From the NCBI RefSeq assembly GCF_026210795.1, contig NC_089448.1, positions 2,356,001 through 2,420,000 on the forward strand: 64,000 nt of DNA, given 5' to 3'. Position numbers and translations under genes: made by a program. Position 1 is the stretch's first letter, and each line of letters begins with the position of its first letter. The notes beneath the pieces are model-generated. The model was not told the DNA's origin, did no database searches, and saw only the letters and a program-made list of their open reading frames with translations. Positions 11,870-58,773 of this stretch are shown in pieces. Source of the DNA: Rhizophagus irregularis (taxonomy: Eukaryota > Glomeromycota > Glomeromycetes > Glomerales > Glomeraceae).

Positions 11870-12830
11870 CAGTCAACTCTCTTTATAGTCACACATTTGG
11901 GACAGTCCATATTTGGTGATTATAAAGAGATGTGACTATATAAAAAATTTCTTATATTAGTATATTATAATTCCGGCCAAAAATTAACATAATTTTAGCC
12001 AAAATTATACTCAAAACTTTATTGTATCATAACTCCACCAATATTAATCTTAGAGAGATGATCTTACCGCCATTCGATTCGTCTTGATGAGACGGTTCTA
12101 ATGGTATAAAATACGTCGAAATCCAATCACTAGATTAATTTCCGAAATTAAAAAAATATTAATGGTTTTTGTGTAATAACTCTGCCAATATTGATCCTAG
12201 AGAGACAATCTTACTACCATTCGATTCGTCTTAATGCGGCGAATCTAATGATATAAAATACATTGAAATCCAATCACTAGATCAATTTCCGAAATTAAAA
12301 AATATTAAATGGGTTTTAAGTAGTAACTCCGTCAATATTGATCACAGAGAGATGAGTTTACCACCATTCGATTCGCCTTGATGAGGCGATTCCAACGAGC
12401 TATTAATCGTCTTTTTACAATCACTAGGTACCAAGAAATTTAGCAAAATGTTAAATGGCGCAGTAAACATAAATCAAGAAATATAATAATGCCGATGCTT
12501 AACATTTTGTTGAATAACTCATCAGCCAGTGATCGCAAAAGGATAAAACTACCACCATTCGATTCATCTCAGTGAGACGATTCTAACAAGCTATGATACA
12601 TCTTTGTACGATTATTAGATGCCAAGTTATTTAATATATTCTTTATATAACTGTGATTATAAATGGTTCTTTTTAATATAAGATTTTTGAGGATAGGTGT
12701 GATAGTGACTATAGATAGATTGTGACTATATAGGATAGTTTTTAATAATAAAGTGTTTTGAACATTCAATTGGTGTGACTATATAGTAGAATGTGACTAT
12801 AACGGGAGTGACTATAGAGGGAGTTGACTG
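11870..12830. mobile_element. Pogo-like non-autonomous element, 961 bp
   Basis: Left end CAGTCAACTCTCTTTATAG and inverted right end CAGTCAACTCCCTCTATAG are flanked on both sides by TA. The element sits in a foldback unit whose uninterrupted form (CTTTATAAAATAAA) is seen near 14449. TIR sequence and TA duplication match pogo/Tigger/Fot-type elements. Inside are four copies of the palindromic module (12061, 12208, 12352, 12546) in a tandem array of about 145 bp. No transposase is encoded. Other copies: 34866-35064 (short) and 58248 onward. Confidence 0.8.
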
Positions 12831-13194
12831 TAAAATAAAACAAAAACATATGGATGCATTTTTGGAATAGGCTTATTAGTCTGTTGTAGATCAAATTGAC
12901 CTATATTTTAAAATTAGTATATGGTCTAAATTATCAGTTTATATTAATAATATCTTAAAACTGTATAATTGATACTTTTCTTATATAATTAATCATGCTA
13001 ATTTGAGACATATGTTAATTTGGTTATAATAAATCTAACCAATTGATTCAGGTAAGACGTGTGTCAATAATATATTAAATTATTAAGTCTAACCAATTAT
13101 TCTATATAGAAGGGTGTGTTAAATTCCAAAAATGCGCCCATATGAATCATTGAAATTGGACTGCTAGATGGTAAAATAATTGCAAAAGCTTATT

Positions 13195-14150
13195 TTATTT
13201 TTTTTTTTTAACCACAATGCATTTGATAATTTATTAAATAGTTCACAGACTCGGAAAATACAATAAGTATCTAAAAACCTAATCTACCCTATCTAATATA
13301 ATTAACTACCAAACCACTCGTCATGCGTAAAGCACCCCACGTGTGCACTGTCGGGTGAAGTTTTTGCTCAGAGGGTATGATCATTTTGTAAATGGTCAAT
13401 CTTAGCGTAAACGCCCCTCTTTCTTCACAAGGCATTCACGGGACCTACTACATCGCGAATAAAAATAAAGAAAAAAAAGAAAATTTTTTTTTTGTTAAAT
13501 GCAGATAAAAAGTAAAAATTTATAAATCCATCCAGATCGTTCCTCCCACGAGCGTTCCATAAAATAGTGAGAGATAAGCATCCACCATCCAGGTCATAGA
13601 ATCCTAAGCGCACGACATAAGGGTAGGACTGAACAGCTGTAGTAAAAGCGAATCATTCCCAATACGTCAGGCTTGTCTGCATGGCGCCTCATTTACAAGT
13701 AGAAAGCGATTCATTATCAGTAAGGGTAAACATTAACATCGGATATCCATTGGCATGGCTTGATATCTTGAACACTGCTAATCGCCACCTTCTAATAACT
13801 CCAAGCCACCAACCATAGTAAGCTCTATCCATTTGTGTAATTATTATAGAAGATGTAAAACTAAAACACAAGTAACAGAAAAAAATATCATCTAAAACTG
13901 TAGAAAAAATTAAAAAAAAAATAAAACGATAAAAGTTGAACTAGACTTCGGGCGCCATAAAGTTGAACTTTGTCTCTATCCTTTTTCCTCCGAGGTGTGT
14001 AGGCATAGTCGAAGATAAGGCCCAAGGCTTTGATCGAAGGTTGTTTAAAGATAAACCATCAGCGGTTAGTTCCACAATATCAGAAAAAGGTCGGGCTGAG
14101 CGTTACGTCAATAAATCCATTAAAAATCCAAATTAAGTTATCCGTTCCGA
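13195..14150 (-). mobile_element. Poly(A) retroposon, minus orientation, 17-bp duplication
   Basis: AATTGCAAAAGCTTATT lies at 13178-13194 and 14151-14167. The insert starts on the plus strand with a poly(T) run (13195-13210), so its 3' end and poly(A) are on the left. Its 3' part (13215-13440: CCTAATCTACCCTATCTAATA..., TTCTTCACAAGGCATTCAC) is shared with 39025-39262 (+), 22390-22510 and 50397-50647 (+). The more 5' part (13440-14150) has no recognisable protein; open stretches on the minus strand are short. It may be a SINE or the 3' end of a LINE. Confidence 0.7.
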
Positions 14151-14540
14151 AATTGCAAAAGCTTATTAATAAATAAATTATTATATATTATATATATATT
14201 ATAATACAATTATTCTACTATCCAATAATCCAATTTGTATAAACTCCTTTTGTTTTGTAGACCTCTTTATGCTTTACAAAACAAAACAAAAATCATTAAA
14301 ATTGAACTGCTAGATAGTAAATTAATTGCAAAAAAGCTTTTTAATAAATAAATTACTATATATTACATATATATTATAATACAATTATTTTACTATCCAA
14401 TAATTCAATTTGCATAAACTTTTTTTTTATTTTCAGAGCTCTCTTTATACTTTATAAAATAAAAAAAAATTTATTGAAATTGACTTTTTAAATGGTAGCG
14501 TAATGCAAAAAAGCTTCTTAATAAATAAATTATATATTAT

Positions 14541-17327
14541 TTACTATGAAGTTATCAACTGCGAATGTTTCAATATTTCAACAAAGTGATGATCTGAGTA
14601 AACCAGCTCTATGAACATTAAAAAAAAATCAGATAAAAAAAGAGTTAGTAAATATAATTCAGATAATGAATGTATTATTTTATTACACATTTTTCCAATT
14701 TGATCTAATCAAATCCTATCAGTTGATTAGTAATCTTAACAATATTTAAATTTCAGAAAAATAATAAATTTATCACTATCATTTAAGCCTTTTTATTTCT
14801 TATTATAATTTTTGAATAAAATCAGTATTAAGAATTTTATTCAAGTTTCTAAGAGTTATAATATATAATTAATTTTTTTCATGATTTTGAATAATTTTGT
14901 AAGCTAAACATCATACTTTAAAAGAAAATAGCAATAATTGGATTAGATTATCAATAAAATATAAAATACTAGCATTAATAGATGTAGGTATATTTATTGA
15001 AATTGCCTAAACTCTCATGTTTTTTGCATTACTTTAAAGTTTAGAATGCTAGGAATCATCTTATAAGCAAACTTTCAAATAAAGCTGTACAGATTCTATC
15101 ATTCTAATATTTTAATATTCACTTATTAAGGTTAATTGATATAGTCACAGTTATATACTTCTTTTGCATTTTAATTTTTCATTACAATAACTTTACCTTA
15201 TTTTTACAAGAAGATCAAAATATCAACAATTTTACAGATACCTTTTTTGCTTATTAGTTGGTATTCTATCATAATTATTGATATATATTTTTCTAATACA
15301 TGTTTAAACTTCTTTATTTTTAACTGCTGCAATTTGTCTTTTGATGTACTACTTTTCTTAGAAGTAGGTTAAGTATTCCATTTAATTCCAGAAAGTGAGG
15401 AAGATGTAATACTACTGTCATCATCTTTTAGACAATTTTAGCATAAGTGATCCATTTATTTTTACCTTTTAAAGTAAATGGTTGGATTTGTACATCTAAA
15501 AATTTTATTTATATCACAGATAGTATAACTGATAATTGGCATTTTAGCTTTTCAATAATTTACATCTGTATCAATAGCTTATCTTATATAACTGGATTGC
15601 TATTGTTGTTGACATGTTCCAGATTAGTGACTTTTTTCTTATAACAACTTTAAATTGCTTTCAAAAACAGTTATTATAAATATTAATAACTTGGAAAATA
15701 ATATACAAAAAATATATGTAGTTATACTTATCAAAGTCCATATATTCTTTGAGCTCTATGCTATATACTTGAACAAAACTATTAAGACAGCTGTATATTT
15801 TTAGGTAAAACTTGCTTAAGGCTTGAAATATGCCAGTTTTGCTCTCTAAAATATCTGCGAAGGATTTTTCAGTAAAACTTTCCAGTAATATGCTGTATGA
15901 GGTTTGCAGCCTCTTGTGGTGTAAAAAAATATTATTATTATTTGCTATAAGACCTATATTTTTATTTTAATAAAAAATATTTCAGCTGAAATTTCATAAA
16001 AAATGGTCCATGTAATCAGTGATGAAAGGTCTCAAATTATTGAGTTATTATTATATTAATATGTATATATATATCAGATATTAATTTAGTTATTTTAAAT
16101 TTTTTTATGTTGTATTTCTGTTATTTTAATTTTTTTTTTAGATAAATAACTAATTAATAATAGTAATAAAATTGCATTTCTAGTATTAATATTAACCAAG
16201 TCATTATAAAAAAAGTACTTTATTATACATTATTTGTAAATTAAATACTAAGAGATGTTCAAAAGTCCTATTATACTAATTAAAAATTGGTAAAAAGTTA
16301 ATAAAAATTCAATCTCAATTTTTATTTTAACTAAACAATTTTTTGATATAAAATCCTAATCACTTTACAAATTTCAAAACTCGGAATTATATCTAACCAC
16401 GTGATTCGTATTTAGTGTTATTAAGCTAACGTGCGAACGTGCGGCGCAAATATTGTTCTGCAAGTTTTAATACTTGGATAACAAAATTTTATTTGGTAAA
16501 TATTAATACCAAATTTTGGCAAATCTAGTTTCTTATCATAGTTGTGTTAAAAGAAATTGTTGCGCCACAAATCTGGCACGAATATTTAAATCAACCATAC
16601 CATACTTTTTCTACGTTATTAATATTATTAATATTGTAGATGATTATTGGTTGAACGCCACCGAAGAGTGACTATAAATGATGTGTTTGATGTGTTAAAT
16701 ATACGAAATATTTTTTTCGAACATAAAATAGATTTAATATATAATTATTTTTTGTACATAAAATATGGATTAATAAATTATTATTATTACAATTATGACA
16801 ATTTTGTAAACTAAATTTAACTCTTCGTACTAAACAGGTAAATTAAAGAATAAAATAGTGTAAGCGTTAAATGCTTTCTATTGGATCGATGATTAATACT
16901 TTTATATCTCAGCAAATATTTATATAAATCCATAATAAAATTATAAAACAATCTCACTTCCCCACAAAATTAAACATAGTATTGTTAAAAATATATATCT
17001 ATTATTATAAAGATATCAGATATTTTGAGTGATAAAGAAATTTAAAAATATTTTAAAATACAGCCCAACAATAATAATAATTTTGAATGTTTACGATCCA
17101 AATACAATATCCATACTGCAATTCGTTCTTCAAATAGTAAATGCAAATAGTTTCAAAAATTGTGAAATGGATCGTAAGAATTTTGAAATAAGGATTAAGC
17201 TTGTGTCAATTGAGCAGTAGAAGAATCACCAGCTTGATTTGAATCCTATATATTACATAAACAATAACAATTCACGAGATGACAAAATATTACAAATAAA
17301 AATTATTAAAAATTTAAAATAACAGCA
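14541..17327. other. AT-rich intergenic DNA
   Basis: No gene, RNA or clear repeat boundary is recognised. Short open frames (for example 15447-15644 and 17029-17220) have no family signal. A locally GC-richer patch at 16395-16680 (GTGCGAACGTGCGGCGCAA) is unexplained. Confidence 0.35.
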
Positions 17328-18478
17328 TCAATTTATCACCTCATCAATCTGCATATACTCGCTCATCTCAGCATCCAATTCTTCTTGTGTTTTTTTGGGC
17401 CTATTATCAGATCTACGACCTCCTCGACCCCCTCGACCCCCTCTTGTGGGGGTGCCACGAGATCCTCCGGTACCACGTGTGGATGGGCGAGATCTTGAAG
17501 AACAAAATAACATTAAAAAATCAAAAATTAATTAGCAAGCATAAATTTCGACTTACTCATTGATTCCACCAATACGCTGAGTAATCGGACCAACGTTAGG
17601 AGCAACAACAATTTCAATCTTCATTTCACGGCCTAATTATAGTGAATAAAAAGAATTCTAGATAATATTTCTTAAATAAAAAGCCATGTAATTGAGTAAT
17701 ACATACCATCAAGAGTAATATTCCTAAGTTTTTCAACGGACCGTACGGCGTCATTTTTCCTTGCAAAAACAACGGATGCAGTACCTTTTGAGCGACCACT
17801 TTGATCAAAGTTAAGGTTAACTTGGCGTACAGGACCGATCATCGTTGAGAAAAGTTCCTGGTATTGTGAAAGGATAAAGGGAGTCGAAGTGTGTATGTGC
17901 ATGGAGAGTGTTTTGTTTGCGATCAGGTGGTTTGTTTTCAGTAGGAGCAACATGGTTGATCGGCTTGGAGAGCGTTGTAGAAAAGATTTCAGAATCTCCA
18001 GGTTCCAAAGCCATATGGCGAAGAAGGGCCGTTGACGATAATAAATTCGTACAAAGGTTGCCTTTTCGCTTCAGGTTTATTTGTTGACGGTCTAAACCTC
18101 AGCTTTGGCACCAAAGAAAGAAACTAATCACCTCTCTCTGATTTTTTTCTGCTGTCTCTCTGTTGCACAACCGTCAACGGCTTGCAAAGTATTGGACATT
18201 TTATAAATAGTTACCCAAAGATCTGCCTCTGTGACTTTATAGGCGAGGTTTGAAACAAGAATTTTTCCTTCTGGTGATGCGTTGAGATTTGATGATGCCG
18301 TAGCAGCAGTATTACTGTAAGGTCGAGGTCTAACTTGTGAAGATCGAGGATTTCTGACAGGACCGCCAGAACGCTTAGCGATGCCACCTGTACGGGTAGG
18401 ACCTCCGGTCCTAGCTCCTCTTGATGGCCTTTTTTTCGCAATAATTTCATCAAGAGACATGTCTAAACCTGCGGACAT
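17328..18478 (-). CDS. ALY/REF mRNA-export adaptor (Yra1 family)
   Basis: Four exons (18478-18215, 17857-17707, 17632-17557, 17493-17328) give 218 residues. Order: the N-terminal UAP56-binding motif LDMSLDEII (5-13), an RG-rich linker, an RRM at about 71-150 with RNP2 ILVSNLAY (73-80) and RNP1 RSKGTASVVF (110-119), a C-terminal RGG-type region (RGGRGGRGGRR) and a second UAP56 motif LDAEMSEYM (203-211). This layout is diagnostic for ALY/REF, which the TREX complex loads on spliced mRNA and which hands mRNA to the Mex67/NXF1 receptor in the nucleus. Introns 2 and 3 are 74 and 63 nt, but intron 1 is 357 nt and falls inside the RRM. Confidence 0.93.
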
Positions 18479-20084: not shown

Positions 20085-20511
20085 TTGTTTTTTTTATTAA
20101 AAATGATATTAACAGTTTTTTTTATTTTCTATCATTCACTTTATTTCTTTTTTATTTTTTATATCCATTTTACTTCCTTTTTATTTATTTTCCATTATTT
20201 TTTTTTGCTTTTTTTGTTTTTTATTATTTCATTATTCCCTTTGCCACCATTTTATTTTTTATTATTCCCTTTGCTTTCATTTTATTTTTAATTATCCTTT
20301 TCATTTATTATCATTCCTTTCACTTTCATATTATTTTTTATCAATCCATATCACTTTATATCATTTTTCATTACTTCATATCACTTCATATTGATTTTCA
20401 TCAATCCATATCGCTTTATATCATTTTTTATCACTCTATCATATCACTCCATGTTATTTTTTATCACTCCATATTGTTCTATATCATTTTTCATTACTTC
20501 ATATCACTTTA
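20085..20511. repeat. Pyrimidine-rich tract, left half
   Basis: A long low-complexity tract built from TTTTATTTTTCATTA and ATCACTCCATATC words. It continues after a TIR element at 21609-21975, so it was one tract of about 800 bp before the insertion. Open frames in it encode only F/Y/L/I/H runs and are not genes. Confidence 0.8.
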
Positions 20512-21608
20512 CACATGCTGATCAAAATTATCCAGCCACTTTGTTTTACCAAAATTATGCAGATCATCACGTGCTAATGTGACAAAAATATTATATGATT
20601 TTATATTTATAATTACAATAAACAAATTTCCATGCTTTACATTTTTCATATTTTTCAGAATTTTTCAGAAATATAAACCATTTACTGAGTAAATTTATGA
20701 TTTACGTAATGATAAATTAAAAGATTTAAAAAATCCCGTAACTTTGTCAATATTAATCTAATAAACATATATTTACCACCATTTGAATCGCCTCGATGAG
20801 ACGAATCTAATAAGCTAAAAATTATGGTTAGGGGAGTTACACATATCACGTAATATTCATTTTCTTATAAACCTTACCCCCCCCCCTCCCCCCCCCCCCC
20901 CCCGTTAGATTTCATAACCAATCAAATTATAATATTTATAAATCATATGATTTAAATAAGTGTAACGTAAAATTTTAACTACCCCCCTCCCCCCCTATAA
21001 TAATTACATAATATGTGTAAGCTCCCTTATACGATCACTGAATCAAAACTTATTATAAAATTTATTTAAATCTTTAAAGTGCAATTACATATCAAATATC
21101 GATCCTACAAGAATGTAATTATTACTATTCGAATCCACTTAATGAGACGAATCTAACAAATCTTAATTCATGAAGATCAAATTACTGAGTAACGAAATAT
21201 TCTTGATATACGATTTTTAAATTTTAATCTATAATCTTACACAAATTTTCATAAACTTACATAATAATATATTTATGTAAGTAGTTATAGGTCAAGCTAT
21301 AATCTTATATAATATTATTTCATAATGGATAATACTTAACCTTATTAAATTTTGTAATAAAAATACTGAAAAGCATGTTAAGGACGCATGAATAAATATA
21401 TCTCCAGAATATTATTGATAGCATACTTTGTAGAATTGAAGAAGCTATTGCCACCAATGAAAATAGAATTCATTATTAAATTTTTATTTAAATTAACAAA
21501 CAATGGCACAATGAATATATATAACTTTAAAATTTAAATTTCACAATATTATGCATATATAAGTTTATCACTTTAAAAAAGTGGCCAGATAATTTTGATC
21601 GGCATGTG
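20512..21608. mobile_element. TIR element of 1.1 kb inserted in the pyrimidine tract
   Basis: CACATGCTGATCAAAATTAT at 20512 is repeated inverted at the end (rc CACATGCCGATCAAAATTAT, ending 21608); the TIR is about 31 bp and ends in CCACTTT. Both sides are TA and the same pyrimidine tract. Internally it holds two copies of the palindromic module (20771, 21121), a C27 tract with one T (20877-20903), a second C run near 20980-20996, and an inner foldback (GGGGAGTTACACATAT at 20831 against ATATGTGTAAGCTCCC near 21010). Non-coding. Confidence 0.8.
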
Positions 21609-21975: not shown

Positions 21976-22054
21976 TTATTAATTTTTTTTTTTTTTTCTG
22001 CAGTACATTTGCAGTTTTATTAAAGTAAAAAAATAAAGAAAAGAATAAATGTAT

Positions 22055-22364: not shown

Positions 22365-22389
22365 TTAGATTTATCCTAAAGAAAATATA

Positions 22390-22510: not shown

Positions 22511-22516
22511 TTAGTA

Positions 22517-26780: not shown

Positions 26781-26782
26781 AC

Positions 26783-27115: not shown

Positions 27116-27125
27116 TGCCATTTAA

Positions 27126-33719: not shown

Positions 33720-34111
33720 AAAGCTCTACATAAGCCAGCTTGAGCCAAGAACCAAGGCAGCTCAGCTTGGCTCATTATTGCTCTTAAAAGCTCACAAACT
33801 ATTTCATTTTCAAAATCATATAAAATTTATTATAACTAAAATTTCAAAACATGATAACTTCACCAATATTGCTCTCCAAATTTAATGATTTTACTACCAT
33901 TAGATTCATCTTATCAAGAGGAATCGAATGGTAGTAAATTTATTAAATTTGGAGCAATATTGGCGAAGTTATCACGTTTTGAAACTTTAGTTTTAATTTT
34001 CAATAAATTAAGCCAAGCCAGCACCAAGTCAAACTATAACTGCAGCTTGGTTTGATTTGGCTTGGCTTAGCTTAAAAGCTCACAAGCTGGCTTGACTCAT
34101 GTAGAGCACTA
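33720..34111. mobile_element. MULE-like MITE, 392 bp, exact 9-bp duplication
   Basis: TTTATAGGT at 33711-33719 and 34112-34120. Ends AAAGCTCTACATAAGCCAGC and, inverted, GTGCTCTACATGAGTCAAGC. In its centre, 33849-33985 is a palindrome built around a copy of the shared module (ACCATTAGATTCATCTTATC then its inverse). Non-coding. Confidence 0.85.
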
Positions 34112-34527
34112 TTTATAGGTTTTTTTCCTTTATATACAAGTTGTTTTATATAACTAATACCTTTATGCTTTAAATAAATCTTTTTTTACTTGCTATATAT
34201 ATCTTCATTAAATATAGCTTTTACTAATGAAACCTTAAGTAGGGTTAAATGGTCTGTTTCTTACATTTTCAACAAACTTTTTTATTGTTTAATAGTATAA
34301 TAACATATAATTGTAAATGCAAGTTATATGATAATTTAAAACTAAAATACCATATAATGTATCTGATACTGAAGTTAATCGTTTAATTAATAATTAATAT
34401 TTTTCTAATAATAAAAACTAAAGTCTGTTAAAGTATATAATTTTCATTTCCTTTGATATTAGTAATATAAGTATTACTATTATACTTGTGTTTTAGTATT
34501 ATAAAAATACATAATTATATAAGGGTT

Positions 34528-34812
34528 TAAAATTTGTGTGCACATACGCATATGCGCACTCCCATGGATATATTATATATAAAAGTCAAAAATGACATTC
34601 TAAACCCTTCATGGTTCATTAAGTAAAGTTGTAGAATGGGCAAAAATACACATAATAAATAAATTTTAAGGCTCTACAATATGTACGTAAGAGTTGCAGC
34701 ATGAATATTTAAAAAAATCGGGATTTTACTAAAGTCATGATCAACAAATTTACTATATAAAAATTACCAAAAATGGAAGGGTGCGCACATGCGCAGGTGC
34801 GCACAAATTTTA
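34528..34812. repeat. MITE with alternating purine-pyrimidine TIRs (285 bp)
   Basis: TAAAATTTGTGTGCACATAC at the left and, inverted, TAAAATTTGTGCGCACCTGC at the right. The next bases are CGCATATGCGCAC and GCATGTGCGCAC. The long runs of alternating purine and pyrimidine could adopt Z-form. No gene. Confidence 0.8.
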
Positions 34813-34865
34813 TTTCTATTATATAATTCTATAATTATTAAGTAATTTATTAGAAAAACTCTATA

Positions 34866-35064
34866 CAGTCGACCTCCTATATAGTCACCTTTTGTATAAT
34901 CACAACATATAAAATTCCCCTTTATAAGCACACCATATTTTAGCCCCAATGTACTAATAAATATATTAGAAAAACCTTCTCTATAATCACAACATATGAC
35001 TTTTTTTATAATCACACCCTTTTTTTTTGGTTCCAAGGAGTGTGACTATAAAGGAGGCTGACTG
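34866..35064. mobile_element. Pogo-like MITE, short copy (199 bp)
   Basis: CAGTCGACCTCCTATATAG and, inverted, CAGTCAGCCTCCTTTATAG, with TA on both sides. Internal ATAATCACA words mimic the termini. No coding; frames on the minus strand are by chance. Confidence 0.8.
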
Positions 35065-35817
35065 TATTCTATAATTAATTTTAGACTTCATAATTAATTT
35101 CATATTATGAAAATATTTAGCCAGAATTAGCCTTAATTTTAACCAATTTATATATAAAAACTTTAATAAATAATAACTCAACATTTAAAAATCTGTTTGG
35201 GATAATCTTACTACCATTTAATTTATCTTGATAAGGCAATTTTAATAGTAGTAAGATCATTTAAATCCAATTACTAGATCATACTCTAATACTAATAACT
35301 TTTAAATATTTATAGCATAAATTGTCTCTATCATTATAATGAATTGAATAGTGTAAATTCATTTAAATTCAATCACTAAATCATGTTCTAACATCAAAAA
35401 TCATTAAATAATTATAGTAATTTAACTCCATTAATATTAATATTATAGAAAAAGAATACATATTATTAGATTTAACTCAATAGAACAAATCGAATAGTAA
35501 TAAAATCATTAAAATCTGATTACTAGATCCTGCAAAATTCACAATTTTGCACTATTATGCAAATTTTAGAATTTCAGAATACGTAATTAATTTTATAATA
35601 TATAATTAATTAAATTAATTACAATTTTATAATTCAGATTTTGGATTTGCCAATTGAATTTTAGAAATAACTATAATTATCATAGTCAAATAGTTGGATA
35701 TACAAAATTTAATATTATTTACATGCTTCTTATTACTAATAATATTATATAGGAGTTTATATTTCTTCATTAATATTCATTTGTTATTTATGAATATTTG
35801 TAATTATATGTTATTTT
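35065..35817. other. AT-rich DNA with diverged palindromic modules
   Basis: Holds decayed copies of the shared module at about 35207-35250 and 35461-35500, in the same order and flanks (AATATTAAT..., AATCACTAGATC) as inside the pogo-like elements. No gene. Confidence 0.5.
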
Positions 35818-36545: not shown

Positions 36546-37497
36546 TCTTACTATTAATAAACAGTTTCTCCTATGTTTATAGAATTTATTCATCTATTTA
36601 TTGTTATTTTGCCTATCTGTTATGTAAAGTAGTATACGTTTAGTTTAGTGAATTTAATACTATTACTGAACACTAGTTTTAAAAGTAAAAAAGTCAATAT
36701 TTTCTTAAAAAATCTAAGTTTTTTTTATAAATATTATTAATAAAGGGGCAAAAGTTTTATTTTTGTGAAAATATATATTTTTTAAATAGTTTAGTAAAAT
36801 AAAGGCACCTTATAAAATTAACAAACCATTTAAAAATATGAGTGTAGGATTAACTGAAAAGAATTTTTGATAAATAAATAATGTTTTAATATATAATTAT
36901 AAAATAAATAAATAGAGTGATATTAACGTTTACTAGTGGTGAAATTCACTAGAGGTAAATTCATCAGTGGTAAAATTCACCCAAGGTAAAGTTTATCTAT
37001 ATCACATAATTTATTAAAATTTAAATTATTTGTTTTGAAAAAACTAATAATTTTATTAATAAAAGTATTTATATAAAGTATATAATTTAATTACAAGTAT
37101 TAAGTAGATTTTATACTACTAAACAACTTTCAATTAATAAAGGAAGTAAATTTCATTTGATTAAAGTGGTAAAATTACGCTTTAAAGTTAGTAAATAGAA
37201 AAAAGAAAAATTCAAAAGTTAGTACTATTATAGGATTCTGAATAATACTAATATAACTTACAAGTAAACTTTAAGTACCAAAGTAAAAATATATTTTATG
37301 ACATAACTCTGTCAATATTAAAGCTAGAAATTCGATTTTACTATCATTAGAATCCTCTCATCGAGACGAATCCAATTATATAAATTTTATTAAAATCGAA
37401 TTACTGGTTATGTTAAAAACAGGAGTATGTAGGATAACGAAATTTTAAAAATACCTCTATAATACGCAACTTTTGAAAAATTTTAATATAAACTCAA

Positions 37498-38694
37498 AGC
37501 TCTGAATGGTTTGGGCTAAACCGGGGAACCGATCTGAAACTGGCTCAAAATTTGGTTCAGATCGGTTCAGGTATTAGAACTGAAAAACTGGCAGTTCAGT
37601 TCAGTTTAATCTGATTTTTTATAAAAATGTGAAAAATCAAATAGTCATCCATCTAGTGATCGTACAAAGTCAAGCCATATATCATTAGATTCGTCTCAAC
37701 ACGACGCGTCGAATGGTGGTAAGATCATGTCTTTAGCATCGATAGATCACACGTTAACTCACGCTAAAAGATTTGTAAATAATTGGAATTAGCAAGCTAT
37801 CTATCGGTGCTAAAGACATGATCTTAGTACCATTCGACGCGTCTCAGTGAGACGAATCCAATGAATATAAATTCGTCTGTGTACGACCACTGGATGGCCA
37901 ATAATGTCAAGTTTCACATTTTTTTAAAATTTTTGAGCGTTAAAAATTAAAAATTCCGATATATGAATTTATTCATCATCCAATGGTCCTACAAATATGA
38001 ATCAGGACTCATTGGATTTGTCTCAATGAGATGAGTCGAATGGTGGTAAGATCACGTCTCTAGCATCGATAGATAGCTTGCTAATGCCAATTTTTTATAA
38101 ATAATTTAGCATGGATTAACTTACGATCTATTGATGCTAGAGACATGATCTCACCACCATTCAACGCGTCTCGTCGAGACGAATCTAATGAGTTTTAATT
38201 TATATTTGTACGACCATTGGATGACGAATAAATTCATGTATCGGAATTTTAATTTTTAATGCTCAAAAATTTTAAAAAATGTGAAACTTGACATCATTCG
38301 CCATCCAGTGATCGTACACGGACGAATTTATATTCATTGGATTCATCTCACTGAGACGCATCGAATGGTGCTAAGATCATATCTCTAGCACTGATAGAAA
38401 GCTTGCTAATTCCAATTATTGATAAATCATTTAGCGTAGATTAACTTGTGATCTATCAATGCTAAAGACATGATTTTACCACCATTCGACGCGTCTCGTC
38501 GAGACGAATCCAATGATATGTGGTTCGACTTTGTACGATCACTAGATGGATGGCTATTCGATTTTTGCATTTTTATAAAAATCAGATTAAACTGAATTGA
38601 ACTGCCAGTTTTTCAGTTCGGTTCTTACAGATTTCAGCTCTAATCTGAACCGTCTATAATCTGGACCAAACCGACCCGTTTGGAGCTTTAACGC
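37498..38694. mobile_element. Nested foldback element, 1197 bp, 9-bp duplication
   Basis: AAACTCAAA at 37489-37497 and 38695-38703. Outer arms: CTGGCAGTTCAGTTCAGTTT (about 37590) against GAACTGCCAGTTTTTCAG (38598). Within lie six copies of the palindromic module (37676, 37821, 38005, 38150, 38330, 38470), arranged head-to-head around AT-rich centres, so sub-palindromes sit inside larger ones (for example 37930-38290 folds around about 38105). Non-coding. The 9-bp duplication fits MULE-type mobilisation. Confidence 0.8.
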
Positions 38695-47290: not shown

Positions 47291-50200
47291 AGTTCATTGC
47301 AATTTATCATTATTAATATTTTTTACGTTATTTTGTTGTTTAAATAAAATTTCTGTATTTTTTTCATTTTCACTTCCAAATGAAGTTAACTTCGTAAATT
47401 TTATAAGTGAACTGACTAATTTATTTATTAAGAGGATCTAATTAGAAATATAAATTTTTTTAGATATCACATTTCGGCCATATAAATACATATATGTTTA
47501 GGAGCAAAAAAGATTTAGCTTGGATTCTTCAATGAAGACATTATACAAAAAAAGTTTATATATATTATGTTCGAAAATTCAGAATGATTAAAAAAAATTT
47601 GTATAGTTCTTCTGACTTTATTGAGAATTTAGGATTGTATTATTGCCTAATTTGTTCATGGTTCGTTTATACTTATTTCTGACCAAATGATTCACAATTA
47701 AATAATATAAATAATTATAAATTAAGATTTGTAAAAATTTTGATACTCTATTCAGAAAGAATATAATGAATGCATTTAAAGCCATTGATCCACTATACTA
47801 AAAAATTATTCCAACTATCCAGCATTTTATTTTTTTTTCAAAAAAAAAATAAATACAAAAAAAAATAAATACTCATTATGTTTATTATATTTTAATTTAT
47901 GCTTAAGGAATATAAGCTTATAAAAAATAAAATAAATTTTTTTGTATATTATTTCAGCCTAATATAATATAATTTTTGGTGTTACTTTACTTAATTATTA
48001 TTTATAAATTTTTTATTTTTTATTACAATTTTTTTAATTTTAAAAGTAAAGAATTTTTCTAATAAAAATCACTTATAGTAAATGTTTAAAAAATAATTTT
48101 TGTATAATACTAATTTCTGTAAGAATTTTGATTTATTTTCTGGATTAAATAACCTAAGCTAAATCACTCCCTTAAAATTTATATTTAACATCAATCATTA
48201 TTTTGAACTCCACTTTAAAGGTATATTTTTTATATCCTTCAAAATTTTTTTTATTAGTATTAACTAATATTTGTTTTTATTTTATAAATCCAAAATGTTA
48301 AAACTTCTTGGGACCATATGTATAATTTTCAAAATAATACATTTAAAGAAGGTATGCATTTATAGAAGTAAAATAATTAGAAATTATATAAACTAAAAGG
48401 TGCATTTAGAAAGGATATATATAATAAATACAATTATAAAAAGTGCTATTATAGAGGTTTAACTGTATTTTGAATTTAATTTTAAAGATAAATAACTTTA
48501 AATATTTTAACATTAGGTTTTTTTAAATATTTTTTAATCCTTCTAAATAAAATAAATTTTAAAGGTATTTTTTTAAAATTAACTTTAAATATTTTAATTT
48601 CTCTTTTGTCAGTAGGTTTTCAGTATTTTAGAATCCTTCTAAATAAAATAAATTTTAAAGGTATTTTTTTAAAATTCTTTTATTCTTTTTTTTTATTTAA
48701 ATAATATTTTAATTTTTTTTTATAGTAACTTTTCTGAATAAAATTTTAAAAATATTTATTTAAATAAATTATTGATTAATATTTCAATTTCTTTTTTTAT
48801 AGATTTACTAGTGTAATAGTGTTTTATATAGATCAAATTGAATAATTGAATTATTCAATTCAATTCAGTTCAATTTAATTCAAATTTGATTTAAATAATT
48901 CAAATTAAATTTAATTTAATTTAATTTGATTTAATAATTCAATTCAAATTTGATTTGATTTGAATTTATTTAGATTTGAATTTAATTCAATTTGATTGAT
49001 TTGATTTAATTTGATTTAATTCAAATTTAATTTAATTCAATTTGGATTTGATTCAACCAAATTAAATTTTTAAATTTAAAATTTAGATTTAATTTATAAA
49101 TTAAAAATTATTAAATTAAATTAAATCAAATCTAAATTAAATCTAAATTAATTAAATTATTTAAAAAACATTAAGGTTTTTAGCTTTTTAAGTAGCATTT
49201 CAAAAGTAAAACTTCAAAAATTTTTATTTTTATTTAACAAATATTAACCAATATTTGTTTCATTTTTTGTAATTCTAAAATATAAAAGTTTCAATTTTAT
49301 TTTAAAAGTAACCTTAAAAAACACATCTTTTTATTTTATTTTTAATTAATATTTATTCTTATTTTTTTTTAAAAAATTTAATTACTAATATTTATTTCTT
49401 TTTTAAAAATAAAAAGCTGAAGAGTTTCTTATTTTAAAAATAAAAATTCAATTTTTTTTTCTTCTATTTAAATAAAACATTTATAGATAATGTTGATTTT
49501 TATCTTTATATACAGTATATATATAAGACTAAAATATCAAAAAATTAAATTTTAAAAGTAAACTTTAATTTTTTTTTAGCAAAATATTATTAATATTTTA
49601 ACTTTTTTTTGAATTTTAATTCTTTTAAATTTTTCTGAATTTTTTTGAACAGAAATTTCAAAGGTATTTCTTTAAAATTAATTAATTTATTTATTTTTTA
49701 TTTGGAATTTACTAGTAGTCATTACTAATATTACATGATTTTTTAATTTTAACTAAAATTAAATGATCAATATAAAATTTTCTTTTTGGAAATTTTATAT
49801 AATATATATTTTACTTTTTTGGATTATATAACATTAGCATTTAGTAAAATCATCTTCAGTGATTTATAATAACTTTTATTTAAATAAAATATTAATTTAT
49901 GCTTTAATTTTTTCTTTTTATAAATCTATAATTTTTAAGCTGCAATTTAAAGGTAAAATTTTAAAATCTATTTTTTATATTTATTTGACAACCTTTCTTT
50001 TGATGAATATGCTATATTAATTTTTTTCTTTTTTAGATTTTAAGATACTAGATTTTAAAGATATTTATTTACTTTTAATATTTTAAAACTTTAATTATAT
50101 TTATTGTTAAAATTAAATAATAATCAATTAAAAATAAATTTACAATAATTTTTAAAAAGAAATTCTAAATAAATAAGCCTAAAGATAAAGTTACTAATAA

Positions 50201-50380
50201 TATGAAAAATTAGTAAATTATCATTTGAAATTGAAAGATGAAATGCTTAGATTTTTTAATTATAATAATTATTTATAAAATTATTATATTTAAATTTATA
50301 TTAAAGTATAATACTTTTTAAAGAAATTTATAAAACTATTATATATACTATATAATTTTATATATTTTTATAATAAAGTT
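47291..50380. other. AT-rich DNA without genes
   Basis: No coding or structured feature is recognised except the AATTCAAATTTGATTT low-complexity tract at 48838-49150. Composition is almost pure A/T, with poly(T) runs. Confidence 0.4.
48838..49150. repeat. AATTYAAATTTGATTT low-complexity tract
   Basis: About 310 bp made of the words AATTCAAT, AAATTTGATT and TTAATTCAA in both orientations, so it can pair with itself in many registers. Related words recur near 52025-52065 (AAATCCAAATTAAATC). Confidence 0.7.
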
Positions 50381-50396
50381 ATAATTTTATATAATT

Positions 50397-50647
50397 GTGA
50401 GTTCTGTAATCATCTGATGTTGAAAATAGAGCTTTATGACTAAGATGCTCTATTTCTAAATAAAGTTTATCTGCAAAGTCAAATGATCACTTGATAATAC
50501 ATACGTAAGGTACTATATGTATAATAAGTAGTTTGTAGTTTAATTATATTAGAGTAAATATTATTAGAACTTTATTTTGTATATAGATTCTTTTAATTTA
50601 TTTTTTTTTACTTTAATAAACTGCAAATGTGCTGTAATAAAAAAAAA
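50397..50647 (+). mobile_element. Poly(A) retroposon, 16-bp duplication
   Basis: ATAATTTTATATAATT at 50381-50396 and again at 50648-50663, immediately after a poly(A) run. The body (GTAGTTTGTAGTTTAATTA, AATAAACTGCAAATG) is the same family as 39025-39262 and 13195-14150 but more diverged. 5'-truncated. Confidence 0.8.
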
Positions 50648-50786
50648 ATAATTTTATATAATTAAAATTACAAAAAAAGTTTAGCCAAATATTACTAGTT
50701 ATTATTTTAATTTATTAGGAAATAGAAATATTTTATTAATTGAGTGAAGTATTTTAAAAGTTTATGTTTATGAATATATAGACTAA

Positions 50787-50956
50787 GAGCAATGACAGAT
50801 ATTACCTAATATCAGTTTATTATAAAAGCTTACCCCCTCTCCTCCAGATAAGATATAATTATTATATATGTAATTTCTTATATAGTATATATGTAACCTA
50901 AGATTTTTAATTACCCCCTCTCCCTTTAGAATATTAGGTAATATCTGTCACTGCCC
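50787..50956. repeat. PIF/Harbinger-type MITE (170 bp)
   Basis: GAGCAATGACAGATATTACC and, inverted, GGGCAGTGACAGATATTACC, with TAA on both sides (50784-50786, 50957-50959). The 3-bp TAA duplication and the GGGCA start are typical of PIF/Harbinger elements. CCCCCTCTCC runs lie inside both arms. Confidence 0.85.
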
Positions 50957-50959
50957 TAA

Positions 50960-53690
50960 TTATTATAAATAAAATATTGATCTCTATAAAATAAATAAAA
51001 AAAAAGTAAATTAGGTATTATATATATATTTAGTATATAATAATTTTATATCACTAGTTAAAAAAGAAATATTCAATTTTAATAAAATTTGGCTTATATT
51101 TGATTAAAATTAAAAATTTGACTTTAATTAGTAATAATATTAATAATTAAATATCATATATTACATATCTTAAAAATTTTTAAAAAAAAACTACTAAAAG
51201 TATTTTTTAAACTTTATTAACTTTTTTTTTTTCTTTTTTTTGTTTTTTTGTTTTTTTTTATTCTTTAACTTTATGAACATAGAAAAAAAACTTTTTTTTT
51301 AAATTATAATGCAATTCAATATTTCTTAATTAAAAATAACTTGTTATATATTTAAATAAAATATATTTTCACATAAAATCCATTATATTTATTTAAAAAA
51401 ATAATAAATTTATTGAAATAAATATTATACATTATTCTGGTATAGTATATAAAATCTGAAAAAAATTATATGTATATATATACATATAAAGTATTTTTTT
51501 TATACACAATCAAAAAATTTTTATGTACAATAGTGCATATTTTTATTAATTTTATTAATATTTTTTTTTAAGAAATTTTATAATAGTACACATTAAATTT
51601 CAAAAATTGTGCATATTATACATATAAATTTTATATACTGTCCTGATTTATTATGTAATATTACATATAATTACAATTAATAAAAATTAAAATTAGTTAC
51701 TAGTATATATTAACACTAATTTATATATATTTAATGATTATCTAATTTATTATTTAATATTACTATAAATATTGTAATTTTTGTTATACATTCTCTTTGC
51801 TAGGACACTTAGGAGTACTATAATGGTAATATTCTGCACAAATTGATTTATGACATGGTATGACTCTGATTGATCTTAAAAGATAAAAACATATTTTGCA
51901 AATAACTTTTAATTTAGTGGTTTGATTTTGATTTTTTTTTTATTTTATTAAGACAATGAGAGCTATTGACTAAAAAAATCATTAAATTTAGATTACTAGA
52001 TCCTAAGATAATATTTTTTGGAGGTCAAATCAAATCCAAATTAAATCTGAATTAAATTAAATTTCAGAAGAAAAATTTGATTTATACAGATATTATATAA
52101 TAACCTATTTTATAATATAAACTACATTTACATTCACCTACATTATTTTTTATTTTTTTATAATTAACATTAATTTGTTTTACTAGTATATTTATATATA
52201 AAAGATTATATGTAAATTACTATTATTAATAAATTATAAGGTATTGTTAAATTTTACCAGTAGTAATTATTATTACCAATGATTAGTGCTTTTAACATAT
52301 CGATCTGATTAGATTGGTAATATGATACAAGTGGATTGATATTTAATTATAATAATTAGTTTATATAATTATAAATATTAACCTTTAAAATACCCACTTA
52401 ATCAGAAAATATTTTTAATAAACTAATTATATTATATTTCAGCAAATAGATTAATTTATTACTATTATAAAATTACTATAAATTAATTATATCTGACAAA
52501 ATACATTATGTTTATTAAAATACAATTTAATTAGTAATTTATCAATTTGACACAAAGTATAATCTTATAAAATTTAAAAAATCAAACTGGTAAAATCTAA
52601 AATTAAAAAAATTAAAAATAATCAAAATAGTTAATCTAGTTCCAACAAAAAAATTTTTAAGTGACCAAATTTTTATATTATGTAATACTTAATACTGTAT
52701 ATAATTCTTAATTCTAGCCAGAATTATACATAATTTTAGTCAGATTTACATGTAATTCTAATCAGAATAAAATATCCAAATATTTAATTTAATAGTAAAA
52801 TATTTCAACTTTAAATTACTATTACTTTATTAAAAATACTTTACAGGAAATTTAAAAACATAGTTTTATTAAGCTTAATCTAGTTTATCATTATATGTTC
52901 ATACTTTATATTTATCTTTTTTTTTTTGAATGAATAGTAGTAATTTAAATTTTATCAAATTTAATTGCTGGAACTAAATTGTATGTATTGTAGTTAATTT
53001 AAAATTTTTTAAAAGTTAAATAGCTGAAATTATACTAAAGTTATAATTTTTATAGTAAAAAAAAATATTAAAATTTAAAATTAATTATTTTTATTATATT
53101 TTTAAATTTTTGCAATTATATTAATTTTATAAAGGTAAAAATATTTTTGAGCAAATTTAATACTTTTTAAAATTTACATTTTATTTAAAGTAAGTTGATT
53201 AGAATACTAAAATATTATATTACAAAAATATTTCAAATAAATTTAAATTTAATATATAAATAAATAAAGTAATAAAATTTTTAAATAAACCTTTTTTATC
53301 CTTTAACAACCTATTTTCAATTTAAAGAAAATTATTGAAAACTCCAAAAGGTAAAAACTGAACTTTTTGCATAATTTGAAAAAATTAAAAATTACAAATA
53401 TTGAAAATGCATATACTTGCGCAGTAAGTCTATTGATCTTAACACGTGATTGATTTGTTCCGAAAACTAATTTTAAAATATATTATTCATCCAATATCTG
53501 ATAAGTCTAATATTAATTTATTCCGCCGGGGCAACGCCTAATACATATTATCTTTCATCTAATATCAGTTTACTATCGGCCTTTCTGCCGTACTCCCTAA
53601 CATCTTCAAACTTCTGTCTGCTGTTTTGTGGCAACTTGTCCATTCATCATCATATTCAACAGTTTCTTCTACTACATTTTTCTATACATT
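50960..53690. other. AT-rich DNA and RHO1 upstream region
   Basis: No gene. A relative of the 154-bp MITE lies at about 52435-52561. A TATATGTATATATATACATATA palindrome lies near 51467-51488 in a possible foldback. From 53420 on composition is richer in GC (CCGCCGGGGCAACGCC at 53523), probably promoter and leader of RHO1. Confidence 0.4.
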
Positions 53691-53695
53691 ATAAC

Positions 53696-53793
53696 TGTAA
53701 GGCTTTACATTTTTAAAGTTACAATATTACTTTCTTAAATAAATTACGTTTAATAGTTGTTTACAAATTTGAATTAATCTTATTTACTTCTAG
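53696..53793 (+). other. Probable 5'-leader intron of RHO1
   Basis: GTAAGG at 53696 and TTCTAG ending at 53793, one base before the start ATG (53795). Both borders are good splice sites. Inferred only from sequence. Confidence 0.5.
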
Positions 53794-53794
53794 G

Positions 53795-55010
<1,216 letters not shown>

Positions 55011-55743
55011 ATTTGGTAATTCGAGTGAGCAAGTTTAAAATACAAAAAGACGGGTCAAAAGAAATCGTTTAATCTGGTTGTCCTACTTTTTTATTACCCC
55101 TTCTTTTCTCCTTAATTTTTTTCATTTCATTTGTTTATTTTATTTTATTTTATTTTTGGACTAAATTATATGTTCTATCATTACTAGTTTTATTTTATGA
55201 AATTTTATAATGTGGAATAAGTACACAAATTATTATATTTCTTTTTAACTGTATCTTTGATTTTGATTATTGTAAGATTTAAATCGATGATTTTCATTTA
55301 CATATCTCTCGCGCGTATATATAACAATTTACGATGCTCTACTTGGAAATTCATTTACCGATATATTGTACTCAATAGGAAATTTCAATAACATGTTACA
55401 ATCATAATTTTAGTCACGCGCAGGTAGCGGCTTGAGTTCCTACCAAATCTTATAAACGCAGTACATCTGATCAACAATATATGATGTGTTTATTTTCAGT
55501 CAATCACTTATGGTAACTAACTTTTTCCATTTACAATAAATATTTCAACTTTTTAGTTGGTAATACTGTAATTATGGTATTTGGCAGATAATTATATTTT
55601 ATAGAATTATAATATTATATTGCTTATTAATTTTATTAAAATATAAATATATAAATTATCCAATATTATATATTTTCAACTGTTGTATGTTAAATAAAAA
55701 AAAAACAATATTTTTTTTTTTAAATGGAGTATTGATATTTATA

Positions 55744-56052
55744 CCACTTAGACAAAAGTAGTGGGAATTCATAATTCATTAATTATTCAAAACATACATA
55801 TTAAAATTTTAACATGTAATAACATAGATAATACAGAATATATATCCTTCATATAACTATGTTAATTAAAAAAGAAATTTAGTAATTGCTACATTACTTA
55901 TATAAAAATAGTGATCCTTCTTCTATATTTGCTGATTACTAAAATTACATATAATAATAATGCTTGAAATTTTAATGTAACAATATAGATTTTAAAGAAT
56001 ATAAAGTCAAATTGTCATGCTTTTAACTTTTATACAGCTGTATTAATTAAAA
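55744..56052. mobile_element. Tc1-like element remnant
   Basis: CACTTAGACAAAAGTAGTGGG and the following 110 bp resemble the left arm of 32493-33083. Later words (TTATACAGCTGTATTAATTAA) match its interior. The right arm is missing; a LINE has inserted at 56053-56069. Confidence 0.65.
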
Positions 56053-56069
56053 AATTTCTGATGATTATT

Positions 56070-57395
56070 TTTTTTTTTTTAAATGTTGAATCATGTATCA
56101 TTTTATTAGAATATATTTGGACTACATAATAATCACAGCTATTCTGTAAATGATACTTTCAGCACCTGGCCAGTCCAATCAAACATTAACTATTATATCA
56201 CAAATAAATTAAGAATAAAATTAAATAGTAAAAGTAAACCAAAATAATTAAACCAAAATACTATACTATAAACCAAAATTAAACTAAGAAGAAAAATAAA
56301 AGAAAAAGTAAAGTGAAATAAAATTTTTTTTTTTTTTTTTAAAAAAAAAATTTTACTCCAGTAATTTTTTGCTTATATATAATGTAACCTTATCAAACTT
56401 CTTCTTTATTGGGATCCAATCCTCACATATGTGTTTTTTTATAAAGGTATCCATTGATTTCTTTACCATAGGAATTGACTTTTATACTTGATCTGCTTTT
56501 TTTGTTTGTATATCTTTGCTTTATCTGAAGGTTGATTTAAGTTGTTTTTTATTTTGGGTTCTAAAGTAATTTTATCTGTTCAAGTAATGCCTTTTCTTTT
56601 TTCTCATAAAATAACTTGTTCACATCTTGGTTTTCATAATAATTCTTTAAATGTTAAAATGAACCATATTAAAATATTGGCCATAAGTATCTGTGCCTCA
56701 TTAAGAGTTATTTTAAAATCTTTTTGTAATTTTGTTGTTAAATAAGTTTCAACTTTCACTTCCAATGCCAAGTGTTGGAACTTTTGGAATTTTCTGATCT
56801 TGCTGTAACTTCTAATATATCTTGTAATACATTTCTAATAAAATTTTCACCTTAGCATTTAATTTGCTTTTGTTTTAAGCATATAATTATAAATTCTTCT
56901 GTTGTAATCTCCAAAATTTTTTGCCAAATCAATTCATATACTTGGCATTCAAATAAGTGATTCCAATTTTCCTTCTTGTTACAGTTCATAAAACATTTCA
57001 TCTCCTTATAAAGTTTTAGCTTTCTTAATGCTAGAATGGATCCTAAAGGAAGAATTTTATGAAATAGTTTTGCTATAAAAGTTCACAAATAGTTAGTTTG
57101 CATACTAGTGCAATGAAACCCTTTGCAATAATAGAAAATAAGCCAAGTAATTTTCCAGTCTATCTGATTAATATTTGTATAACATAATTCCTGATTATTT
57201 TTTAGTAGTGACTATTCAGTAGCTTCATATGTAGCTAATATTTTCAAAATAAATCGCCTAATATTAACTTTAATAGGATTATCTATAAAAACAGGAAAAT
57301 AAGATAGTATATTATCAATAAAATCTACATTATTTCTAAAAAGATTATTTTCACATTGTCCTTTTTTTGCCAATTTGTCAGCTATATCATTGCCT
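56070..57395 (-). pseudogene. 5'-truncated LINE (RNase H and C-terminal tail), decayed
   Basis: AATTTCTGATGATTATT is repeated at 56053-56069 and 57396-57412 (17 bp). On the minus strand the insert opens inside an RNase H domain (GNDIADKLAKKG), passes stops, and shows the LINE tail CNKKENWNHLFEC (a C-x2-C..H-x4-C knuckle, near 56950) with LRKLKLYKEMKC before it. The 3' end is a poly(A) (poly-T at 56070-56079 on the plus strand). A run of T then A at 56324-56350 splits the 3' UTR. It is an old 5'-truncated insertion with several stops. Confidence 0.75.
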
Positions 57396-57412
57396 AATTT
57401 CTGATGATTATT

Positions 57413-57845
57413 AAATTAATGATATTTCATTTTTTAAATATATACTAATTTTATTCATATATTACATTGCTGAAACTTAAGAATTTAATACTGCTAAGTC
57501 ACCTACTAATTATCTAAATACCATCTATTAGTAGATATAAATTTAAGTTTAAATAATACAATTAGGTTACTTTTAAGGTAACTTAACTTTTTTTAATAAG
57601 CAACTTTTAGGTAAAAGTTTGTAAAAGTTATAGGTAGCTTAAAAAATTATAAATAAGTAACTTGTAAATTACCTATAGATAATTTAATAATTTACTAATT
57701 AGCAGCTTTTATAATACTTATAGATTACTAAGTATTTATGTGATTAGGCTATTATTAATCAATTTATAAATAGTATTTTAGGTGATCTAAATATTACTAT
57801 ATTAAAGTAAATATATATTAAATTACTAAACCACCTAGTAGCAAC
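57413..57845. other. AT-rich DNA without genes
   Basis: AAGTTACCTTTAA/AGGTAACTT-like words repeat in both orientations (57560-57680). No gene. Confidence 0.35.
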
Positions 57846-58017
57846 CACACGTCAAATGACCAAAAACAGGCAAAAAAAATGGCTAGAATTGCATAAACTA
57901 TTCGCAAATTTATATAAACTATTTACAAATAGTATAGGTTAATTCGCAAATAGCCAAAAATAGCCAAAAATAGCCACTGCTTTTCGCGCTTATTTTTTGC
58001 CGATTTTTAGCATTTCG
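57846..58017. repeat. Dispersed repeat D, copy 2 (172 bp)
   Basis: Near-identical to 41793-41984 from CACACGTCAAATGACC onward, but with fewer AATAGCCA-type units. Its high identity, compared with the decay seen in other repeats, implies recent copying. Confidence 0.8.
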
Positions 58018-58247
58018 ATTGCAATGAACCAGTATGTAACTATAACTATATTATAGTAATAATATAATAAATATAGTAAGTAATAAACTAAATAGCTGTA
58101 GAAATGAGTAACATAAAAAATTAGTTCAAAGTGAAATTCAGAATAATACTGACTTGGAGTGAGTGAGTAACTTAATGCAATAAAAAAATCATATTTAATA
58201 TATATAAAACTTTTCTGAAAGCTTTACTTAAAACATCTATGCATATA

Positions 58248-58773
58248 CAGTCAACTTTCTTTATAGTCACACATTTGTGATAGTCCATATTTGGTAATTA
58301 TAAAGAGATGTAACTATATAAAAAATTTCTTATATTAGTATATTATAATTCCGGCCAAAATTATACTTAAAACTTTATTGTATCGTAACTCTTCCAATAT
58401 TAATCATAGAAAGATGATCTTACCGCCATTCGATTCATCTTGATGAGACGGTTTTAATGGTATAAATTACATTGAAATCCAATCACTAGATTAATTTCCG
58501 AAATTAAAAAATATTAATGGTTTTTGTGTAATAACTTTGCTAATATTGATCCTAGAAAGACGATCTTACTACCATTTGATTCGTCTTGATGCGACAAATC
58601 TAATGGTATAAATTACATTGAAATCCAATCACTAAATCAATTTCCAAAATTAAAAAATATTAAATAGTTTTTAAGTAGTAACTCCGTCAATATTAATCAC
58701 AGAGAGATGAGCTTACCACCATTCGATTCATCTTAATGAGGCGATTCCAACGAGCTATTAATCGTCCTTTTAC
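58248..58773. mobile_element. Pogo-like element, copy 3, left part
   Basis: CAGTCAACTTTCTTTATAG start, preceded by TA, then three palindromic modules (58420, 58562, 58712) colinear with 11870-12425. It is broken at 58773 by a retroposon and continues at 62185-62332. Confidence 0.8.

What the first reader, a model, noticed from the sequence alone, without database searches (positions are those of the whole stretch)
12061..58755. A palindromic module shared by unrelated transposon families
About 19 copies of one module occur in the window, at 12061, 12208, 12352, 12546, 20771, 21121, 33888, 35207, 35461, 37334, 37676, 37821, 38005, 38150, 38330, 38470, 58420, 58562 and 58712. Core arms are GATTCGTCTC and GAGACGAATC around a 3-nt loop. 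It is preceded by CAATATTGATC...GATCTTACCACCATTC and followed by AATG...AATCACTAGATC. The module lies in a pogo-like element (TA duplication), a CACATGC TIR element (TA) and two kinds of MULE-like foldback (9-bp duplication). Sharing across families that use different transposases suggests it is itself mobile, or a captured functional site such as a binding, replication or RNA-structure element.
Basis: seen in the sequence. Interest (0 to 1): 0.75.

Follow-up and report, generated by a model that had tools for sequence, protein, structure and literature searches.

The report
Shared palindrome inside unrelated fungal transposons
A roughly 115-letter imperfect palindrome sits, often in evenly spaced rows, inside several otherwise unrelated families of small transposons in a mycorrhizal fungus, and its centre stays unusually constant between families, which hints at a protein-binding site shared among transposons rather than a hairpin RNA or an independent jumping gene.

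Summary
In detail: all 19 modules are present, and no shuffle gives such cores. The genome, inferred to be Rhizophagus irregularis, has at least 1,939 sites near the core pattern.

The module is an imperfect 115-bp palindrome of two diverged 57-nt arms. It lies in at least seven short, apparently non-autonomous element families with read target duplications of TA, 9 bp or 8 bp. Two transposase-bearing pogo-like elements with similar termini lack it.

The RNA-structure reading fails: arms pair no better within modules than shuffled, and one core position is mismatched in 25 of 25 modules. I found no sign that the module moves alone. Two families share about two and a half modules plus some flank as one block.

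Within families the inner 16 nt of each arm diverge about as much as the rest (4.0% vs 4.9%); between eight families, half as much (20.3% vs 44.6%). I read this as constraint on source copies. Best explanation: a foldback-type building block traded between transposons, its core kept as a protein-binding site. Neutral chimerism is the main rival. The protein and the benefit are unknown.

The parts
11870..12830 (.). host F1: pogo-like element, CAGTCAACTC ends, TA duplication, four modules
   Evidence: ends and TA read by eye; about 519 similar left ends genome-wide
12030..12144 (.). module, dyad 12087
12177..12291 (.). module, dyad 12234 (147 bp from the previous)
12324..12438 (.). module, dyad 12381 (147 bp from the previous)
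12515..12629 (.). module, dyad 12572 (191 bp from the previous)
20512..21608 (.). host F5: CACATGC-ended element, TA duplication, two modules
   Evidence: relative L006
20739..20853 (.). module, dyad 20796; right arm diverged
21085..21199 (.). module, dyad 21142
33720..34111 (.). host F3: foldback, GCTCTACAT ends, 9-bp duplication TTTATAGGT, one module at the centre
33857..33971 (.). module, dyad 33914; both arms of one type; left arm carries a small insertion
34483..35673 (.). host F4: ends TACTTGTGT / TAGTTATTT, TA; decayed; two other elements inserted
   Evidence: limits by comparison with J18, J19, J10; approximate
35174..35288 (.). decayed module, dyad 35231
35423..35537 (.). decayed module, dyad 35480
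37304..37418 (.). module of host F6 (relative L009; ends not resolved), dyad 37361
37496..38689 (.). host F2: foldback with six modules in alternating orientation
37642..37756 (.). module, dyad 37699
37790..37904 (.). module, dyad 37847
37969..38083 (.). module, dyad 38026
38117..38231 (.). module, dyad 38174
38294..38408 (.). module, dyad 38351
38442..38556 (.). module, dyad 38499
58248..58775 (.). host F1, second copy, first part; F1-like sequence resumes at about 62128
58386..58500 (.). module, dyad 58443
58532..58646 (.). module, dyad 58589
58679..58775 (.). module, dyad 58736, cut by the insertion

Best explanation
The module is the internal building block of a group of short, apparently non-autonomous DNA transposons, several of them foldbacks. 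It is a 115-bp imperfect palindrome made of two diverged 57-nt arms. It multiplies inside elements as tandem or alternating-inverted arrays and has passed between elements with different ends; block sharing between F1 and F4 is shown. I infer that the passing happens by template switching or ectopic recombination between palindromic arrays during repair. The inner 16 nt of each arm stay constant in the source copies of each family because a protein binds there. That protein is probably encoded by the host genome, because the carriers use different transposases, and binding helps the element's expression, upkeep or transposition (inferred, not shown).
For: Sharing across end types: F1, F4 and F5 with TA, F2, F2b and F3 with 9 bp, F7 with 8 bp. 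F1 and F4 align as one block over 421 bp at 70%. Varying module number, and spacing of exactly 147 bp in 36 of 48 F1/F4 intervals. Core versus arms: 4.0% vs 4.9% within families, 20.3% vs 44.6% between eight families. Conservation peak 13-16 nt from the dyad (0.97 and 0.80 identity, chance 0.29), also in the 13 of 30 representatives that none of three core patterns would pick (0.93 and 0.77). CpG-rich core kept (3.0 CpG per 33 nt vs 0.5 expected in the window). No co-variation of arms, as expected for a conserved sequence.
Against: Modules were found with patterns and profiles that favour intact cores, and family comparisons are not independent. In single old copies the core can be worse than the arms (F1 vs L048: 0.66 vs 0.91-0.93). 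F4 arrays differ more between subfamilies than F4 ends do (0.207 vs 0.104, 8 pairs). The dyad is not a special breakpoint (A-arm vs B-arm correlation 0.35, inner vs outer 0.33 and 0.37). Two autonomous pogo-like elements do without the module. No binding protein was looked for.
Confidence: 0.45

Rival explanations
1. Neutral chimerism: the module is functionless internal filler of an old foldback family, moved into new element ends by nested insertion, deletion and abortive gap repair; palindromic repeats merely make it recombinogenic.
For: Block sharing of F1 and F4 with flank; variable module numbers; L015 looks like two outer half-modules joined at the core (0.88 identity per arm over 57 nt); no function shown.
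Against: Uneven conservation: the core diverges half as much as the arms between families but nearly as much within them, although the core is CpG-rich.
Confidence: 0.35
2. The module is, or was, itself a small mobile palindrome, with outer ends near TAACTCGG...CCGAGTTA and a TA duplication.
For: Between-family similarity drops beyond about 57-60 nt from the dyad, where TA is conserved.
Against: In F8, F7 and one F1 module the arm similarity runs on past TA. No module-only insertion or empty site was seen. Sharing is by array.
Confidence: 0.08
3. The core is a crossover site of a site-specific recombinase, two inverted half-sites around a short spacer, which adds and removes modules.
For: Half-site geometry; L015 as a possible core-to-core deletion; 14 module pairs with discordant arms.
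Against: No excess of exchange at the dyad overall. No recombinase was searched for.
Confidence: 0.06
4. A structured RNA or hairpin-derived small-RNA source.
For: Near-palindrome; weak miRNA-hairpin matches below Rfam thresholds.
Against: No co-variation on 25 modules or 30 (core 0.827 within vs 0.814 swapped); position 11 mismatched in 25 of 25; no Rfam match over threshold in the window.
Confidence: 0.04

Closest known systems
Foldback transposons with internally repetitive arms: Tetris (PMC4079207, abstract and passages seen), and Galileo as cited there
   Same: Non-autonomous, foldback structure, repeat arrays inside the arms, 8-10 bp duplications in Tetris; for Galileo the passage says internal tandem repeats hold extra transposase binding sites.
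   Different: Here one module occurs in elements with TA, 8-bp and 9-bp duplications, so a single transposase is an unlikely binder; the unit is itself an imperfect palindrome.
Satellite-like repeats carried by HINE elements of oysters (PMC7492417, passages) and satDNA-transposon networks in molluscs (PMC5139131, passages)
   Same: Short arrays of units of about 140-180 bp inside non-autonomous elements; repeats proposed to be shared and shuffled between elements; palindromes sometimes at junctions.
   Different: HINEs are Helentron-type with subterminal repeats and a 3' palindrome; the hosts here have terminal inverted repeats and target duplications.
Mutator-like and pogo/Tc1-type MITEs
   Same: Ends and duplications of the hosts (9 bp; TA).
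   Different: MITEs normally resemble one autonomous parent; the interior here is shared across end types and absent from the two transposase-bearing pogo-like elements examined.
CENP-B-box-like motifs in satellite repeats (mentioned in PMC5139131)
   Same: A short conserved motif in repeat units that may promote rearrangement.
   Different: By eye the core does not fit the CENP-B box consensus, which I recalled; not tested by a tool.

Membership tests
Mutator-like foldback element (F2, F2b, F3) | 9-bp target duplication | tested here: met
   ACACATAGT (L015), AATAATTAC (L065), ACTTCTAAC (L066), GATCTATGT (L067), TTTATAGGT (F3); not clean for the window copy of F2
Mutator-like foldback element (F2, F2b, F3) | long terminal inverted repeats | tested here: met
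Mutator-like foldback element (F2, F2b, F3) | mobilised by a MULE transposase with matching ends | tested here: inconclusive
   6 of the 150 listed MULE matches fetched; none shows F2, F3 or F8 ends within 1 mismatch in about 3.3 kb
pogo-type element (F1) | TA duplication and ends shared with DDE_1-bearing elements | tested here: met
   first 13 bases CAGTCAACTCTCT identical to L059 and L061; TA flanks
pogo-type element (F1) | interior derived from the autonomous parent | tested here: not met
   no module between the ends of L059 or L061; two elements only
HINE (non-autonomous Helentron) | no terminal inverted repeats or target duplications | tested here: not met
   inverted ends and duplications present in F1, F2b, F3, F4, F5, F7; the defining feature is recalled in part, passages
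Structured RNA family | compensatory changes in helices | tested here: not met
   424 of 500 shuffles reach the covariation score
Structured RNA family | match to an Rfam model over threshold | tested here: not met
Galileo-like internal transposase-binding repeats | repeat bound by the element's transposase | not testable with these tools
   needs binding assay
Self-mobile module | target duplication or empty site of the module alone | tested here: inconclusive
   similarity runs past the candidate TA border in F8 and others; no strain comparison available

The most novel reading that the evidence does not exclude
One DNA-binding protein of the host recognises a palindromic site that transposons of at least three duplication classes (TA, 8 bp, 9 bp) have acquired by exchange and kept, so that the site is a transposase-independent fitness module traded among mobile elements.
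Probability: 0.25. Interest if true: 0.75.

Novelty: new variant of a known kind. Interest (0 to 1): 0.5.

Why it matters
About two thirds of the transposable elements of R. irregularis are unclassified (abstract of PMC11075540). A module with at least 1,939 near-core sites ties several of these families into one network and supplies a concrete DNA bait for its binder. If the core is a host-factor site, it would be an unusual case of different transposon classes keeping the same accessory sequence, and a direct way to ask how non-autonomous elements gain from sequence other than their ends.

Tried and rejected
RNA structure: rejected on co-variation and Rfam (six matches below threshold only). 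tRNA-like: none in the window. Recombination at the dyad: 14 discordant pairs, but no special role of the dyad overall. A 113-bp MITE with TA border: suggested, weakened. Nucleosome or helical spacing: 147 bp in 36 of 48 F1/F4 intervals, but 148/179, about 172 and 182 bp in F2, F7 and F8, so not claimed. Indel test: one search was spoiled by alignment into unrelated flanks, on trimmed F4 copies, gives 4.5 gaps per 100 substitutions in arrays and 20.9 in flanks, but array and flank differ in divergence too, so I draw no conclusion. Other organisms: no exact match of a core pattern in viral or prokaryote contigs; other fungi could not be searched. F7: no open frame of 110 aa inside it. One of six MULE loci (L079) holds modules; their positions fit an adjoining F1 copy. 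Literature: listings (open-licence library) show no paper on this module; most listed papers were not read.

Full report
Setting. The window is G000:C20:2356001-2420000 of a 146.7-Mb, 32-contig genome. An elongation-factor primer used for R. irregularis (listing of PMC4153046) occurs once and exactly; with the AT-rich sequence and genome size I infer R. irregularis.

Observation. Genome-wide there are 1,939 sites within 3 mismatches of one core pattern and 1,146 within 1 of a second, overlapping one; reversed controls give 0. Only 6 of 19 window modules and 9 of 49 in loci L065-L076 match either pattern, so the true number is probably several-fold higher. Six 8-kb pieces taken at round coordinates (48 kb) hold none, so the window is rich in modules.

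Anatomy. Arms reach 57 nt from the dyad; the outward consensus is about YGAGACGAATCNAATGGTRGTAAGATCATCTTTCTASGATCACTAGATGCCGAGTTA. Of 191 modules, 184 had full arms; they form 56 clusters. I kept 30 representatives and set aside 15 clusters for indels, truncation or decay (among them F3 and several F4 copies) and 11 single-copy clusters that I had not printed (L009 and others). The kept ones align without gaps (25 of 30), but gap-free arms are therefore not a rule for every copy. Many modules join an arm with GAATGGTGGTAAGAT to one with YAATGAGCTAT; by a simple score, of 137 modules 83 are mixed, 52 like-like of the first type and 2 of the second.

Hosts, grouped by flanks and ends. F1: pogo-like, TA; 519 sites match its left 30 bp within 3 mismatches. 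F2 and F2b: foldbacks with 9-bp duplications in L015 and L065-L067. F3: foldback, 9 bp. F4: ends TACTTGTGTCC / TAGTTGTTTCC, TA. F5: CACATGC ends, TA. F6: ends unresolved. F7: ends AGGAYCCCGAAGAATACATATA, 8-bp duplications ACACGAAC and GGTAGCAT. F8: 182-bp units in arrays that reverse direction at the centre, duplication not read. No stop-to-stop frame of 100 aa lies inside the window hosts F1 (first copy), F2, F3 or F4; two frames overlap the edges of F5. F1 and F4 align at 70% over 421 bp, covering about two and a half modules and some 40 bp of flank. L059 and L061, DDE_1-bearing elements with both ends in the locus and the same first 13 bases as F1, hold no module. L059 has stops in its match.

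Structure test. On 25 of 30 representatives (left out when typing: the two decayed F4 window modules, two L048 modules, and L015), shuffles reach the observed value in 477 of 500 (cells paired), 460 (pairs changed on both sides), 329 (cells changed on both sides), 499 (pair types) and 424 (covariation score). Pairing exceeds that of slid partners (62.5% vs 32-39%), as any palindrome would. On all 30, core pairing is 0.827 within and 0.814 swapped; 16-25 nt gives 0.450 vs 0.412 (sd 0.015), the one region slightly above swapping, perhaps due to the self-palindromic L015 (not tested); the others are not above. Columns 46/70 are mismatched in 25 of 25; L015, left out, does pair there.

Constraint test. 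Between-family identity over 354 pairs of 29 representatives is 0.97 and 0.80 at 13-16 nt, 0.63-0.81 at 1-12 nt, 0.29 and 0.31 at 49-52 nt (chance 0.29), and about 0.5 at 57-60. The 13 of 30 representatives that none of three core patterns would pick show the same shape, though all were found with a profile. Within families (105 copies of 15 clusters; copies favoured by the patterns dropped, which removed clusters 4 and 10 entirely), core and arms differ by 4.0% (134/3360) and 4.9% (425/8610). Between eight families (21 modules) they differ by 20.3% and 44.6%. The core averages 3.0 CpG per 33 nt against 0.5 in the window; PMC8647823 (abstract and passages) reports DNA methylation at TE loci, so CpG loss would be expected. 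In one old copy the core is indeed worse than the arms (0.66 vs 0.91-0.93). Against the reading: detection bias, non-independence, and F4 arrays more diverged than F4 ends (0.207 vs 0.104 over 8 pairs).

Distribution. On contigs C1-C8, using listed rows only, 49 of 78 thinned module sites fall in the best quarter of each contig (uniform mean 38.5; 0 of 1000 as high), F1 ends 46 of 78 (5 of 1000), DDE_1 control 22 of 44 (971 of 1000). The module list is mostly F1, so this chiefly describes F1. Whether the dense regions are centromeric is unknown.

Mechanism. Shown: sharing across end types, block sharing, variable module number, uneven conservation. Inferred: spread by template switching or ectopic recombination; protein binding at the core. 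L015 fits two outer half-modules of an F2 array joined at the core (0.88 per arm over 57 nt).

Known relatives. Passages of PMC4079207, PMC7492417 and PMC5139131 show that repeat arrays inside foldbacks and repeats shared between elements and satellites are known. The same palindromic unit across TA, 8-bp and 9-bp classes with a conserved core makes this a new variant of that kind.

Noticed in passing
34866-35064: A pogo-like MITE (CAGTCGACC ends, TA) without the module, inserted in the decayed F4 element that carries modules.
   Followed up: partly
about 34525-34815: An element with GTGTGCACAT...GTGCGCACA-type inverted ends nested in the same F4 copy.
   Followed up: no
about 58776-62127: About 3.35 kb of other sequence splits an F1 copy inside its third module; it contains open frames (60851-61840, 329 aa). 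A related 1-kb stretch interrupts F1 copies in L001, L023 and L025.
   Followed up: partly
20867-20996: Runs of C (nine or more) inside the F5 element, giving strong GC skew there.
   Followed up: no
48001-52000: Two to four kb of extremely AT-rich DNA (13-15% GC).
   Followed up: no
L070-L076: F8: 182-bp palindromic units in arrays that reverse direction at the centre; L070 holds seven units with ends AAAGTTGCCTGCCGAAAC.
   Followed up: partly
L014:2113 and L010:931: Two diverged single modules outside the F4 copies in those loci, possibly further host families.
   Followed up: no
genome contigs C1-C8: F1 ends and modules cluster in about a quarter of each contig while DDE_1 matches do not.
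   Followed up: partly
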